A stretch of 64,000 bases of DNA from Streptomyces sp. NBC_00286 (GTDB lineage Bacteria; Actinomycetota; Actinomycetes; Streptomycetales; Streptomycetaceae): the NCBI RefSeq assembly GCF_036173125.1, contig NZ_CP108054.1, forward strand, positions 8,399,001-8,463,000. The letters are read 5' to 3'. Shown here piece by piece: positions 43,857 through 49,781 of the stretch; within the stretch, counting starts at the first letter, position 1, and every line of letters starts with the position of its first letter. The position numbers and the translations under genes were made by a program. Under the pieces are notes generated by a model. The model worked only from the letters and a program-made list of their open reading frames with translations. It did no database searches and was not told the origin of the DNA.

Positions 43857-44020
43857 ATCGTCCCTTTCGCTGTTCCATGAGGGGCGCAGGGGCCCGGGGG
43901 CGCCTGCTCCATTCGTGAACGTTACTCTCGGGGTCCCGATGATCGATCGTGCGGGTGCGGCATGCTGTCTGCCCGGAAGCGATACGTGAGCAGGCCGATC
44001 CGGTGCGTATGGGGGGACCC

Positions 44021-45286
44021 ATGGGGCGAGTGACACGAAGGGCGTTCGCGGGAGCGATGCTGGCCGGGCTCACGGCTGCCGGAGGCGCGGCGGCCTGGGC
44101 CGCGACGACCGGCGGCGAGACGGATGAGGACGAGAAGGCCGAGGCCCGGCGCCGCGCCGGCTCCGGCGAGATGCGCGGCGTGTGGCTGTCGACCGTCACC
44201 AACCGCGACTGGCCGTCCAAGACCGGGCTGACCGCCGCCGAGCAGCGCTCCGAACTGCTCGCCCACCTCGACACGGCCGTACGCTGCCGGCTCAACACGG
44301 TGATCTTCCAGGTGCGCCCCACCGCCGACGCCCTGTGGCCCTCTCCGTACGAGCCCTGGTCGCAGTACCTCACCGGCACCCAGGGCAAGGACCCCGGCTG
44401 GGACCCGCTCGGCACCGCGGTCAAGGAAGCGCACGCGCGCGGCCTGGAACTGCACGCCTGGTTCAACCCGTACCGGATCGCCAACCACGCCGACCTCACC
44501 AAGCTGGTCGCCTCGCACCCCGCCCGCGAGCACCCCGACTGGGTCGTGCCGTACGGCGGGAAGCTCTACTACAACCCCGGGCTGCCCGAGGTCCGCGCCT
44601 TCGTCCAGGACGCGATGCTCGACGCGTTGAAGAAGTACGCCATCGACGCCGTGCACTGGGACGACTACTTCTACCCGTACCCGGTCGAGGGCGAGGTCTT
44701 CGACGACGACGCGGCGTACCAGCGGTACGGCGGCGGCTTCGAGGACCGTGCGGCCTGGCGGCGGGACAACATAGACAAACTCGTGCGCGAGACGGCGGCC
44801 CGCGTCAAGAAGATCCGGCCGGGCACGCAGTTCGGGATCAGCCCGTTCGGAGTGTGGCGCAACGCCTCGACGGACTCGCAGGGCTCGGACACCCAGGCCG
44901 GCGTGCAGACGTACGACGACCTGCACGCGGACACCAGGAAATGGGTGCGCGAGGGCTGGATCGACTACATCTGCCCGCAGATCTACTGGAACATCGGCTT
45001 CGCCGCCGCCGACTACGCGAAGCTGCTGCCCTGGTGGGCGGAGGTCGCCGAGGGCAGCAGTACGCGGCTGTATGTGGGCGAGGCGTTGTACAAGGCCGGG
45101 GATCCCGCGCAGCCCGAGCCCTGGCAGGACCCGGCCGAGCTGTCCCGGCACCTCACCCTGGTCAAGGAGCACCCGGAGGCGCAGGGCCACGTGTTCTTCG
45201 CGGCCAGGGAGGTCAGGGAGGACAAGATCGGGGCCATGGCCCGGGTGGTCGCCGACCACTACCAGCGGCCGGCGCGGACGCCCTGA
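44021..45286 (+). CDS. Secreted GHL10-family glycoside hydrolase-like protein (DUF187), Tat signal
   Basis: 421 residues from ATG 44021 (GGGGGGA upstream). The twin-arginine signal VTRRAFAGAMLAGLTAAGG fits Tat export. The TIM-barrel begins at EMRGVWLSTVTNRDWP and contains FQVRPTADALWPSPYEPWS, HAWFNPYR, the catalytic-looking HWDDYFYPYP and ISPFGVWRN, all typical of the FenI/YngK group. Substrates are thought to be cell-wall or polysaccharide glycosides. The last 77 codons are duplicated 4.3 kb downstream, after the large lyase gene. Confidence 0.88.
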   Translation: MGRVTRRAFAGAMLAGLTAAGGAAAWAATTGGETDEDEKAEARRRAGSGEMRGVWLSTVTNRDWPSKTGLTAAEQRSELLAHLDTAVRCRLNTVIFQVRPTADALWPSPYEPWSQYLTGTQGKDPGWDPLGTAVKEAHARGLELHAWFNPYRIANHADLTKLVASHPAREHPDWVVPYGGKLYYNPGLPEVRAFVQDAMLDALKKYAIDAVHWDDYFYPYPVEGEVFDDDAAYQRYGGGFEDRAAWRRDNIDKLVRETAARVKKIRPGTQFGISPFGVWRNASTDSQGSDTQAGVQTYDDLHADTRKWVREGWIDYICPQIYWNIGFAAADYAKLLPWWAEVAEGSSTRLYVGEALYKAGDPAQPEPWQDPAELSRHLTLVKEHPEAQGHVFFAAREVREDKIGAMARVVADHYQRPARTP

Positions 45287-45294
45287 TGATTGAG

Positions 45295-45639: not shown

Positions 45640-48600
45640 ATGAGACGTATGAGACGAATGCATCGCGCACTCTTAGTGGGCGCGTTGGCCGTCGGAATGT
45701 CAGGCGTGTACTACCCGGTGGCGTCGGCCGCGCCGGCTGACCCCCCTCCGCTGGAGGTCCAGAACGTCACGGCGAGTCCCGATGACGGCAACGTTCCCGC
45801 CAACACCCTGGACAACAACCTGAGTACCCGCTGGTCGTCGCAGGGCGACGGGGCGTGGATCCGTTACGACCTCGGCTCGGCGCAGACCGTCGGGTCGGCG
45901 TCGGTCGCCTGGCACCAGGGGAACAGCAGGAAGAACACCTTCGACATCCAGCTCTCCGACGACGGATCGTCCTGGAAGACGGTCCTGGCCCGGAAGACCA
46001 GCAGCGGCAGCACACTTGAGCAGCAGAAGTACGACTTCGCCGACGCCTCGGCCCGCTATGTGCGGATCGTCGGCCATGGCAACACGGTCAACGACTGGAC
46101 CAGCATCACCGAGACCGACATCTACGGAGCCGACGGCACCGGCGGCGGTGGCGGCGGCTCCTGCGCGTACCCGGCCGAGGTGCTGGACCTGAAGAACTGG
46201 TACATCGGGCTGCCGGTGGGCGAGGAGGAGTCCCCCACCAACGTCTACCAGCCGGAACTCGCGACATACGCCAACGACCCGTGGTTCGTCACGAGTGACG
46301 ACTGCACGGCCGTCCGGTTCCGCGCCCCGGTCAACGGGGTCACGACCAGCGGCTCCAAGAACCCCCGCTCGGAGCTGCGGGAGATGACGGACTCCGGGGA
46401 GACCAAAGCGAGTTGGTCGTCCACGTCCGGCACCCACACGATGGTGATCGACCAGGCCATCACCACGGCTCCCAAGGAGAAGCCGGAAGTCGTGGCCGGG
46501 CAGATCCACGACGCGTCCGACGACGTCAGCGTCTTCCGCCTGGAAGGCAAGAAGCTCTACGTCACCGACGGCAACGAAAAGCATCACAAGCTGGTGGACG
46601 AGAACTACGAGCTGGGGAAGCGGTTCCAGGCGAAGTTCGTGGTCAGCGACGGCAAGATCAAGGCCTACTACAACGGCCAGTTGCAGACCACGCTGTCGAA
46701 GAAGTTCTCCGGCGCCTACTTCAAGGCGGGCGCGTACACCCAGGCCAACTGCACCAACTCGAAGCCGTGCAGCAGTGACAACTACGGCCAAGTGAAGATC
46801 TACGACCTGAAGGTCACGCACGGCGACGGTGGTGACGGGGGCGACGGCGGCAGCGGCGGCGACGGGGACTCGACCGAGGCCGCCAAGCGGCACGGCTGGG
46901 GCACGCCGCTGCCGATATCCGATGAGTTCAACTACACCGGCCCGGTGGATCCCACGAAGTGGGACGTACCGTCCGGCAGCGTCGGCGGCACGCCCCAATG
47001 CTGGGAAGGCCATAGCGGAAACGGCCGCCGGTGCGGGAAGAACAGCACCGTCGCGGACGGCATGATGACCATGCGCGGTGAGGCGAACGGCGACACCGGG
47101 TGGATCAGGCAGCACGAGCCCACCCAGTACGGCCGATGGGAAATCCGGTCCCGCTCACGGAACACCGGCTCCGAGGGCGAGCCCTACCATCCGCTGCACC
47201 TGATCTGGCCCACTGAGGGCAACCGGTTCGAACGCGGCGAGTACGACTGGGTCGAGTACTCGGACCCCGACGCGCAGTGCCTCGGGGCGTTCCTGCACTA
47301 CCCGAAGAGCCCGTCGGACAAGAAGGAACACGAAGAGATCTGCCCCGTGGACATGACGAAGTGGCACAACTTCGCGTTCGAGTGGACGTCCAAGGCGCTG
47401 GTCGGCTACGTCGACGGTGTCCAATGGTTCCGGTTCGCGGACGGCGCGAACGCCGACCGGGGGAACATCCAGGACATGCCCCTGGGGAACCTCGTCATCC
47501 AACTGGACAACTTCGCTGAAAACGGCGGTCCGCGCCCGGCCGTGTTCGAGGTCGACTGGGTTCGGACGTACGACGTCGATGCGGGCGAGGACCCCACGGA
47601 CCCGACTGACCCCACCGATCCGACCGATCCGACTGACCCCGGCGGGGACTCTCCGGTCCCGGTCGCGGACGTCACGGCGAGTCCCGATGACGGCAACGTT
47701 CCCGCCAACACCCTGGACAACAACCTGAGCACCCGCTGGTCGTCGCAGGGCGACGGGGCGTGGATCCGCTACGACCTCGGCTCGGCGAAGACCGTCGGGT
47801 CGGCGTCGGTCGCCTGGCACCAGGGGAACAGCAGGAAGAACACGTTCGACATCCAGCTCTCCGACGACGGATCGTCCTGGAAGACGGTCCTGGCCCGGAA
47901 GACCAGCAGCGGCAGCACACTTGAGCAGCAGAAGTACGACTTCGCCGACACCTCGGCCCGCTATGTGCGGATCGTCGGCCATGGCAACACGGTCAACGAC
48001 TGGACCAGCATCACCGAGACCGACATCTACGGAGCCGACGGGGGCGGTGACGGCGGCGGGGATCCGACCGACCCAACGGACCCGACAGATCCGACCGACC
48101 CAACGGACCCGACAGATCCGACCGACCCAACAGACCCAACGGATCCGGCCCCCGTCCGTACGGTCCGTGTCGCGGACTCCACCGCGTTGAAGAGCGCGTT
48201 CGGCGACGCGCGGCCCGGCGATCGCATCGTCCTCGCGGACGGCACGTACTCGATCGGCAAGATGACCGGCAAGAACGGAACGGCCGCCCAGCCCATCACC
48301 GTCGTCGCGGAGAACCGCGGCAAGGCGGTGATCGGCGCCGGGCAGCTGGAGGTGGCGAACTCCTCCTACGTCGTCTTCCAGGGGCTGAAGTTCACGAACA
48401 GCAACACCCTGAAGATCACCGGCTCGAACAACGTACGGCTGACCCGCAATCACTTCCGGCTGACCGAGGAGTCCACGCTGAAGTGGGTGATCATCCAGGG
48501 TGAGAACAGCCACCACAATCGGATCGATCACAACCTGTTCGAGGAGAAGCGCCAGCGCGGGAACTTCATCACCATCGACGGATCCGAGAAGCAGCAGTCA

Positions 48601-49497
48601 CAGCACGACCGCATCGACCACAACCACTTCCGTGACATCGGCCCCCGCGCGACCAACGAGATGGAGGCCATCCGGGTCGGAGAGAGCAGCCTCTCCCAGT
48701 CGAGCGGATTCACCGTCGTCGAGTCGAACCTCTTCGAGAGGTGCGACGGCGACCCGGAGATCGTCTCCGTGAAGAGCAACGACAACATCGTCCGCCACAA
48801 CACCTTCCGCGCCTCGCAGGGTGTTCTGTCCCAACGGCACGGGAACCGCGGTGAGTTCTACGGCAACTTCTTCTTCGGGGAGGGCAAGGCGGGAACCGGC
48901 GGGATCCGCATCTACGGTCAGGACCACAAGGTCTACAACAACTACTTCGAGGGCCTGACCGGCACCGGCCACGACGCCGCGCTGCAGATCGACGGCGGCG
49001 ACGTGGACACCTCGGGCGCGTTGAACGCACACTGGCGCGTCTACCGGGCGACCGTCGTGAACAACACCTTCGTGAACAACGTGTCGAACATCGAGATCGG
49101 CGCCAACTACAACCTTGCCCCGGTCGATTCGGTCATCGCCGACAACGTCATCACGGGCAGCCGGGGCAAGCTGCTCAACGAGGTCAAGAAACCCGTGCGC
49201 ATGACCTACGCCGGGAACATCGCGTGGCCGACCGGATCGGCGACCGTCGGCGTGTCCGTGCCCTCCGGCTCCGTCAGGGCGGTCGACCCGCTGCTCGCCT
49301 CCGACGGATCGCTGTACCGGATCGGCGCGGGAAGCCCGGCGATCGACGCCGGCACCGGCGGCCACGCCTTCGTGACCGACGACATGGACGGCCAGGCTCG
49401 CAGCGGTGGCGTCGACGCCGGCGCCGACGAGCGGTCGTCGTCCCCGGCCACACGGGCCCCGCTCAGCGCGACGGACGTCGGCCCAGGCGCCGCGTAG
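45640..49497 (+). CDS. Secreted multidomain polysaccharide lyase: CBM32-PL7-GH16-CBM32-PL6
   Basis: 1285 residues. A Sec signal (1-30, cut near ASA) is followed by F5/8C domain 1 (about 38-164). PL7 alginate lyase (about 175-394) has RSELREM (243-249), QIH (288-290) and YFKAGAYTQ (360-368). GH16 (about 417-647) has ExDxxE as E534-Y-D536-W-V-E539. A DPT-repeat linker, F5/8C domain 2 (about 674-801), another DPT linker, and PL6 beta-helix (about 838-1265) follow, with catalytic Lys1045 (VSVKS) and Arg1066 (SQRHGNR). PL7 and PL6 cleave alginate; QIH is linked in PL7 to G-rich or mixed substrates. GH16 with this motif suits laminarin-type or algal glucans. Codon 12 is TTA. ATG with GTGAGG upstream. 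Confidence 0.9.
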   Translation: MRRMRRMHRALLVGALAVGMSGVYYPVASAAPADPPPLEVQNVTASPDDGNVPANTLDNNLSTRWSSQGDGAWIRYDLGSAQTVGSASVAWHQGNSRKNTFDIQLSDDGSSWKTVLARKTSSGSTLEQQKYDFADASARYVRIVGHGNTVNDWTSITETDIYGADGTGGGGGGSCAYPAEVLDLKNWYIGLPVGEEESPTNVYQPELATYANDPWFVTSDDCTAVRFRAPVNGVTTSGSKNPRSELREMTDSGETKASWSSTSGTHTMVIDQAITTAPKEKPEVVAGQIHDASDDVSVFRLEGKKLYVTDGNEKHHKLVDENYELGKRFQAKFVVSDGKIKAYYNGQLQTTLSKKFSGAYFKAGAYTQANCTNSKPCSSDNYGQVKIYDLKVTHGDGGDGGDGGSGGDGDSTEAAKRHGWGTPLPISDEFNYTGPVDPTKWDVPSGSVGGTPQCWEGHSGNGRRCGKNSTVADGMMTMRGEANGDTGWIRQHEPTQYGRWEIRSRSRNTGSEGEPYHPLHLIWPTEGNRFERGEYDWVEYSDPDAQCLGAFLHYPKSPSDKKEHEEICPVDMTKWHNFAFEWTSKALVGYVDGVQWFRFADGANADRGNIQDMPLGNLVIQLDNFAENGGPRPAVFEVDWVRTYDVDAGEDPTDPTDPTDPTDPTDPGGDSPVPVADVTASPDDGNVPANTLDNNLSTRWSSQGDGAWIRYDLGSAKTVGSASVAWHQGNSRKNTFDIQLSDDGSSWKTVLARKTSSGSTLEQQKYDFADTSARYVRIVGHGNTVNDWTSITETDIYGADGGGDGGGDPTDPTDPTDPTDPTDPTDPTDPTDPTDPAPVRTVRVADSTALKSAFGDARPGDRIVLADGTYSIGKMTGKNGTAAQPITVVAENRGKAVIGAGQLEVANSSYVVFQGLKFTNSNTLKITGSNNVRLTRNHFRLTEESTLKWVIIQGENSHHNRIDHNLFEEKRQRGNFITIDGSEKQQSQHDRIDHNHFRDIGPRATNEMEAIRVGESSLSQSSGFTVVESNLFERCDGDPEIVSVKSNDNIVRHNTFRASQGVLSQRHGNRGEFYGNFFFGEGKAGTGGIRIYGQDHKVYNNYFEGLTGTGHDAALQIDGGDVDTSGALNAHWRVYRATVVNNTFVNNVSNIEIGANYNLAPVDSVIADNVITGSRGKLLNEVKKPVRMTYAGNIAWPTGSATVGVSVPSGSVRAVDPLLASDGSLYRIGAGSPAIDAGTGGHAFVTDDMDGQARSGGVDAGADERSSSPATRAPLSATDVGPGAA
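45766..46136 (+). repeat. Direct repeat copy 1 (F5/8C domain 1)
   Basis: 371 bases nearly identical to 47671-48041, with five mismatches found by eye. It encodes the first discoidin-like carbohydrate-binding domain. Such identity points to recent duplication or gene conversion. Confidence 0.9.
47671..48041 (+). repeat. Direct repeat copy 2 (F5/8C domain 2)
   Basis: Second copy of the 371-base repeat, 1905 bases downstream of the first. Only two of the visible differences change the protein (Gln/Lys near AKTV and Ala/Thr in FADTSA). Confidence 0.9.
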
Positions 49498-49537: not shown

Positions 49538-49781
49538 CGTGCCCGACGGCAGTACGCGGCTGTATGCGGGGGAGGCGCTGTACAAGGCCGGAGACCCCGC
49601 GCAGCCCGAGCCCTGGCAGGACCCGGCCGAGCTGTCCCGGCACCTCACCTTCGCCCGCGATCACCCGCAGGTGCGGGGGCATGTCTTCTTCGCGGCCAGG
49701 GAGGTCGGCGCCGACCCGATCGGCGCCATGGCACGCGTGGTCGCCGACCACTATCAGCGGTCGGCGAAGCCGCCGCGTTGA
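49538..49781 (+). pseudogene. 3' fragment duplicate of the GHL10 hydrolase gene
   Basis: Encodes GSTRLYAGEALYKAGDPAQP and onward to VVADHYQRSAKPPR, closely matching the last 77 residues of the intact gene at 45057-45286. Similarity starts abruptly at GGCAGTACGCGGCTGTATG (49547), about 50 bases after the lyase stop, and continues to the stop at 49781. There is no start codon or signal. It is a remnant, either of a second copy replaced by the lyase or of donor DNA that recombined into the 3' end of the gene. Confidence 0.85.

What the first reader, a model, noticed from the sequence alone, without database searches (positions are those of the whole stretch)
45640..49497. One secreted protein joins two alginate-lyase folds and a GH16 fold
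The order CBM32-PL7-GH16-CBM32-PL6 is visible from intact motifs in every domain: RSELREM, QIH and YFKAGAYTQ for PL7; E534-x-D536-x-x-E539 for GH16; Lys1045 and Arg1066 for PL6. PL7 and PL6 degrade alginate, while GH16 enzymes with this motif degrade laminarin-type or algal glucans. A single enzyme attacking both main polymers of brown-algal walls would be unusual, and I do not know of this architecture being described. The sequence shows the domains; activity and substrate are inference.
Basis: partly seen in the sequence, partly recalled or inferred. Interest (0 to 1): 0.88.

Follow-up and report, generated by a model that had tools for sequence, protein, structure and literature searches.

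The report
Two alginate lyases fused to glucanase
A Streptomyces-type bacterium carries a probably secreted enzyme with two alginate-cutting domains and one glucan-cutting domain in one chain; the same layout was published in 2026, but similar sets of domains in virus tail-region genes suggest its targets may reach beyond brown seaweed.

Summary
ORF 45640-49497 (+) encodes one 1285-residue protein with the order CBM32-PL7-GH16-CBM32-PL6 and intact catalytic residues in all three enzyme domains. The novelty claim does not. A May 2026 ISME J paper (PMC13235733, section 20) lists PL7+GH16+PL6 enzymes with exactly this arrangement and reports, for one marine representative per type, alginate lyase activity plus activity on beta-1,3/1,4-glucan and CMC. 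So this is a member of a published enzyme type. Of 392 sampled same-genus genomes, 5 (own included) carry it in one complete frame, one more runs off a contig end and one is split over two frames. The GH16 domain is below Pfam's cut-off but folds like laminarinases and beta-1,3(4)-glucanases. The paper's main text does not mention phages, yet the same GH16 clade is also joined to PL6, PL7 and an alginate-lyase-like beta-helix in viral tail-region genes, apparently independently, and lies unfused beside CBM32-PL7-PL6 genes in Pseudonocardiales. This supports functional coupling and weakens a purely brown-algal reading.

The parts
45640..49497 (+). CDS, 1285 aa: CBM32-PL7-GH16-CBM32-PL6 enzyme
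45640..45729 (+). putative Sec signal peptide (residues 1-30, ASA|A)
   Evidence: read by eye from the translation; no predictor was available
45757..46134 (+). CBM32 copy 1 (residues 40-165)
   Evidence: (PF22633/PF00754); coordinates
46165..46824 (+). PL7 alginate lyase domain (residues 176-395); R243, Q288, H290, Y366 conserved with 1uai
   Evidence: PF08787 4.8e-46; 1uai polyguluronate lyase 306 bits; coordinates
46882..47589 (+). GH16-fold domain (residues 415-650); expected nucleophile E534, D536, acid/base E539
   Evidence: Pfam below cut-off; coordinates
47590..47661 (+). linker rich in DPT repeats
   Evidence: sequence
47662..48039 (+). CBM32 copy 2 (residues 675-800), 96% DNA identity to copy 1 over 300 nt; nearest solved CBM32 is that of AlyQ, 7d29
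   Evidence: coordinates
48040..48150 (+). linker rich in DPT repeats
   Evidence: sequence
48151..49434 (+). PL6 beta-helix alginate lyase domain (residues 838-1265); K1045 and R1066
   Evidence: PF14592 4.7e-54; (7o84 163 bits, AlyGC 5gkd 161 bits); coordinates
43949..45286 (+). GHL10 glycosidase-like gene upstream (context, not part of the enzyme)
   Evidence: PF02638 2.4e-85
49549..49781 (+). 3' relic of a second GHL10 copy, 85% identical to 45057-45289 (context)

Best explanation
It is a probably secreted, three-enzyme depolymerase of an actinobacterium. Two CBM32 modules hold it on an alginate-rich matrix. PL7 (nearest solved: polyguluronate lyase 1uai) and PL6 (Lys/Arg beta-helix lyase) cut alginate by beta-elimination, and the GH16 domain hydrolyses a beta-1,3(4)- or mixed-linkage glucan that the alginate covers. 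Shown here: domains, order, catalytic residues, fold, recurrence in relatives. Shown by others for a representative of this architecture: alginate lyase activity plus activity on beta-1,3/1,4-glucan and CMC. Inferred: that this exact protein has these activities, that it is exported, that its CBM32s bind alginate, and the order of attack.
For: Domains and catalytic residues. GH16 fold and ExDxxE: the three catalytic positions agree in 69 of 69 full-length GH16 segments aligned (5 of the 74 proteins, whose GH16 domain was in pieces, were left out) and are invariant in the 47-row alignment. Published representative with alginate and glucan activity (PMC13235733 section 20). Mixed-linkage glucan lies under alginate in brown-algal walls (PMC5460208 abstract). 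Architecture conserved in other Streptomyces. Of the 80 genome loci kept out of 267, 32 of the 40 nearest (65-92% identity) have the GH16 fused to, or in the fetched flank of, PL7 and/or PL6; 1 of the 40 more distant (43-51%) does.
Against: GH16 is below Pfam's cut-off and solved GH16 enzymes share only 16-23% identity with it in the fold comparison, so glucan specificity is not predicted by homology alone. The tested enzyme is named in a supplementary table I did not see, so how close it is to this protein is unknown. No shared or dedicated alginate locus was seen around the gene.
Confidence: 0.8

Rival explanations
1. The natural target is not (only) brown alga but a bacterial or other terrestrial matrix that combines alginate-like uronan with beta-glucan (for example biofilm exopolysaccharide of soil bacteria). 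The enzyme set is a matrix-penetration kit shared by streptomycetes and phages.
For: Three IMG/VR contigs encode, 3' of a tape-measure homologue, a tail-region gene ending in PL7 and then PL6, PL7 and GH16; in one of them (L137) these lie in two overlapping frames with a beta-helix domain added. Among other relatives, P0054 and P0072, P0061, P0069 and, weakly, P0067 and P0023 match PHROG tail families. The GH16 tree rejects one clade of the 41 PL-bearing rows (of 97): p-AU 2e-15.
Against: The only activity data are from marine-derived enzymes. No isolated phage record matched (0 of 50,697). Four of the viral-type proteins scanned match no PHROG family (P0044, P0050, P0062; P0063), and some viral-type proteins are labelled as from bacterial MAGs (P0050 Blastococcus, P0064 Gemmatimonadetes). 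Hosts and habitats of the viral contigs are unknown. Several losses instead of several gains are not excluded.
Confidence: 0.35
2. The GH16 domain acts on another glycan (a galactan, or an alginate-associated polymer) rather than glucan.
Against: The best profile hits are laminarinases and beta-1,3-glucanases; a published representative has beta-1,3/1,4-glucan and CMC activity.
Confidence: 0.12
3. One or more domains are dead passengers and the protein works as a plain alginate lyase.
For: No assay of this protein exists in what I saw.
Against: Catalytic residues are intact in all three domains; all five modules are kept in one frame in relatives.
Confidence: 0.06

Closest known systems
PL7+GH16+PL6 brown-algal-wall enzymes of Xu et al. 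2026, ISME J (PMC13235733)
   Same: Identical module order CBM32-PL7-GH16-CBM32-PL6; alginate plus beta-glucan activity reported for a representative; host strains of the types other than GH5+PL31 described as primarily Actinomycetes.
   Different: The tested one is marine-derived and its sequence was not seen here; this one sits in an unnamed Streptomyces-type genome.
CelAly (GH5+PL31), Aquimarina (PMC13235733)
   Same: Principle of glucanase plus alginate lyase plus binding modules in one chain.
   Different: Different catalytic families and accessory modules; Bacteroidota.
1uai polyguluronate lyase (PL7; ALY-1, name recalled)
   Same: PL7 domain aligns end to end, 306 bits, motifs identical.
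   Different: PL7 domain alone in the solved chain (224 residues).
AlyGC 5gkd and 7o84 (PL6)
   Same: Lys/Arg pair and surrounding stretch aligned.
   Different: AlyGC chain is 726 residues with a second, weak match; this PL6 domain matches mainly its first part.
AlyQ (PL7 with CBM32), 5xnr / 7d29
   Same: CBM32 next to PL7 (5xnr matches residues 40-394); AlyQ CBM32 similar, 121 bits.
   Different: No GH16 or PL6 in the matched AlyQ chains.
ZgLamA and bacterial laminarinases (GH16), 4bq1/4bpz
   Same: Fold, catalytic motif, best profile and fold hit.
   Different: 18-20% identity.

Membership tests
PL7 alginate lyase | PF08787 over cut-off and R / Q-x-H / Y catalytic set | tested here: met
   157.8 bits against 29.7; R243, Q288, H290, Y366 aligned to 1uai; the catalytic roles of these residues are recalled
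PL6 alginate lyase | PF14592 over cut-off and Lys/Arg catalytic pair | tested here: met
   184.5 bits against 24; K1045/R1066 aligned to AlyGC, R1066 at the site of R241A; the role of the Lys is recalled
PL6 alginate lyase | Ca2+ dependence and substrate (M or G blocks) | not testable with these tools
   needs assay
GH16 | Pfam PF00722 over gathering score | tested here: not met
   15.1 bits against 22 for this protein; two distant members of the same clade do pass, 28.2 and 29.1 bits (P0062, P0044)
GH16 | ExDxxE motif and jelly-roll aligning to solved GH16 | tested here: met
GH16 laminarinase subfamily | substrate-specific subfamily placement | tested here: inconclusive
   laminarinases, carrageenase, agarase and porphyranase nearly tied in fold
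CBM32 | F5/8 type C domain | tested here: met
   two copies
CBM32 | alginate binding | not tested
   resemblance to AlyQ CBM32 only
PL7+GH16+PL6 enzymes of PMC13235733 | module order CBM32-PL7-GH16-CBM32-PL6 | tested here: met
PL7+GH16+PL6 enzymes of PMC13235733 | activity on alginate and beta-glucan | not testable with these tools
   reported for a representative only

The most novel reading that the evidence does not exclude
PL6, PL7, an alginate-lyase-like beta-helix and this GH16 clade form a recurrent module set assembled more than once: in secreted actinobacterial enzymes or gene clusters, and in tail-region proteins of uncultivated phages. It evolved to breach a mixed uronan/beta-glucan matrix that is common outside the sea, probably microbial, so the brown-algal-wall use is only one case. 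The beta-helix would then be a new alginate (or related uronan) lyase family.
Probability: 0.35. Interest if true: 0.7.

Novelty: new member of a known kind. Interest (0 to 1): 0.38.

Why it matters
For the finding as given: it is a clean further example of a published multifunctional enzyme type, useful for seaweed saccharification. The wider pattern matters more. If phage tail-region proteins carry alginate-lyase folds together with this beta-glucanase-like clade, there may be a mixed uronan/beta-glucan matrix in non-marine habitats that has not been recognised, and the phage and Streptomyces enzymes would be direct probes for it.

Tried and rejected
Considered: GH16 motif by chance. Rejected: the catalytic E, D, E agree in 69 of 69 aligned segments and the fold model is confident. 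Considered: architecture unique to this genome. Rejected. Considered: architecture undescribed. Rejected after one search listed PMC13235733 and section 20 was read. Considered: gene belongs to a conserved local alginate locus. Not seen: none of 11 window neighbour proteins matched (E up to 1e-10) in the fetched stretches around 10 same-genus relatives, of which one is only 6 kb and one 10 kb. The own-genome PF07940 hit lies among genes that I read by eye as an exopolysaccharide-type cluster. Considered: the beta-helix partner also in this genome. Not found (0 of 21 genomes), while the same family query rang in 5 of 22 genomes chosen for having the GH16 (four strong, one weak at 1.6e-11). Considered: strong concerted evolution of the two CBM32 copies. 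Weakened: only in 7 of 19 two-copy proteins is the internal pair at least as similar as any pair with another protein, and the window's own pair (0.960) is just below its best outside pair (0.968) (which corrects the narrower comparison).

Led nowhere: tblastn of the GH16 domain and of the L015 PL6-PL7-GH16 protein against 50,697 phage records gave no match. P0062 gave no viral contig. The profile of the beta-helix family found no PDB chain at E up to 1. P0044, P0050, P0062 and P0063 matched no PHROG family, nor did L015's PL6-PL7-GH16 protein itself. Promoter/terminator scan upstream empty. Plasmid collection: 43 records with a match, none covering 80% of the protein. Paper searches listed no paper whose title or shown start of abstract describes this set in phages; absence in those listings only, and listings were capped.

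Limits: the homologue search accepts only long proteins, so partner frequencies from it are biased; the genome loci were used as well. In the tree, 9 near-identical Streptomyces rows and 88 of 137 partner-less rows were left out (97 of 194 rows used). Partner domains were called with the window's and three viral-type query domains, so distant lyases can be missed. Genomes overlap and are not independent counts.

Full report

MECHANISM. Shown: modules, catalytic residues, fold. Inferred: export (signal peptide by eye), alginate binding by CBM32 (nearest solved domain is from AlyQ), alginate beta-elimination by PL7 and PL6, glucan hydrolysis by GH16. [quoted passage not shown] Of the same paper I also read the outline and abstract, the methods, sections 21 and 22 and the passages; supplements were not seen. 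The abstract of PMC5460208 reports mixed-linkage glucan in brown-algal walls, unmasked by alginate lyase, which would explain pairing these activities. In the main text of PMC13235733 the words phage and Streptomyces do not occur, and laminarin occurs three times, none of them for these enzymes.

DISTRIBUTION. Searching the GH16 domain in 392 same-genus genomes (own included) gives hits in 22. Five carry the whole enzyme in one frame: the own genome, G047, G050, G105, G184. G022 has all five modules but its frame runs off a contig end, and G082 has them split over two frames. Four have CBM32-PL7-GH16 without PL6 (G037, G121, G186, G298). The remaining 11 have a GH16 match in other contexts; of these only G009, G031, G045 and G067 were scanned, and showed GH16 alone. 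In the named-genome collection 267 loci encode a relative, of which the best 80 were kept. Seven of 80 show the full order in one frame, all titled Streptomyces, and Kribbella albertanoniae (L100) has CBM32-PL7-GH16-PL6 at 48% GH16 identity. Among the 40 nearest loci (65-92% identity), 26 are fused to PL7 and/or PL6 and 6 more have a separate gene with PL7 and/or PL6 in the fetched flank (L065 Actinosynnema, L081 Kibdelosporangium, L083, L085, L086 and L088 Saccharothrix). Among the 40 more distant loci (43-51%) only L100 does. Several loci are cut by contig ends and three genomes contribute two loci each to the nearer 40, so these are counts of loci, not species. The unfused clusters suggest that the single chain grew from a gene cluster (inference).

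VIRAL RELATIVES. Many distant homologues have no signal peptide (by eye, in those I read) and carry PL6, PL7, other lyase or chitosanase domains. P0054 and P0072 match PHROG tail families, as do P0061, P0069 and, weakly, P0067 and P0023; P0024 matches phage families of unknown or other function. P0044, P0050, P0062, P0063 and L015's own PL6-PL7-GH16 protein match none, and P0050 and P0064 are labelled as from bacterial MAGs. In IMG/VR the GH16 profile found 7 loci. A query with P0050 found 3 loci, one of them on the contig of L015. In all three a tape-measure homologue (PHROG-tested only in L015) is followed by a gene ending in PL7 and then by PL6, PL7 and GH16; in L137 the latter lie in two overlapping frames with a beta-helix domain. 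The GH16 tree (97 rows, quick method, SH-aLRT only) separates the secreted Streptomyces group from the viral-type rows, with a starred branch (98) around the 59 rows that hold the latter, and one clade of all 41 PL-bearing rows is rejected (p-AU 2e-15). The group was defined by domain content before the tree was built; several losses are not excluded.

LOCUS HISTORY. The gene lies between a full GHL10 gene and a 233-nt 3' relic of a second GHL10 copy, 85% identical. Its GC is 66.3% against 70.2% for the window, though its third-position GC is 0.91, and none of the relatives' fetched stretches shares the window's neighbours. This fits acquisition at this site but does not prove it. The two CBM32 copies are 96% identical in DNA over 300 nt; gene conversion is plausible in some relatives (7 of 19 proteins) but not shown for this one.

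VERDICT. Real, ordinary as an architecture, already in print in May 2026; new member of a known kind. The open and more interesting question is why viral tail-region genes carry a similar enzyme set.

Noticed in passing
L015:7718-10705; L135:8684-12976; L136:9974-12982; L137:9983-13773: Viral contigs (L015 and L136 are the same contig) carry PL6, PL7 and GH16 (with a beta-helix in L137) 3' of a tape-measure homologue; a further PL7 sits in the preceding tail-region gene.
   Followed up: partly
L039:11763-13244; L061:8459-9925; L060:8491-9927; L065:3189-4718: CBM32 plus uncharacterised beta-helix gene beside the fused enzyme or the GH16 gene; its model is closest to alginate lyase 6kfn. Possible new lyase family; 101 homologues listed.
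   Followed up: partly
window 43949-45286 and 49549-49781: GHL10 gene and a 3' relic of a second copy flank the enzyme gene.
   Followed up: partly
window 45746-46045 and 47651-47950: CBM32 copies 96% identical in DNA; whether by gene conversion is open.
   Followed up: partly
G000:C1:3179989-3180732 (L002; L037:9056-9838, - strand): Second PL7 in the own genome, a 260-aa single-domain protein; the TGA reported inside the match is its own stop codon.
   Followed up: yes
G000:C1:7198038-7198895 and four further places: Five PF05426 (Alginate_lyase) hits in the own genome, the best at 301 bits, and two KDPG-aldolase hits, none near the window.
   Followed up: no
P0054, P0071: Homologues that also carry a chitosanase domain (PF01374); P0054 has PL7 and a tail-protein match as well.
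   Followed up: no
window 49315-49431 (residues 1226-1264): Weak match to choice-of-anchor Q domain at the end of PL6, 23.8 bits against a cut-off of 25.
   Followed up: no
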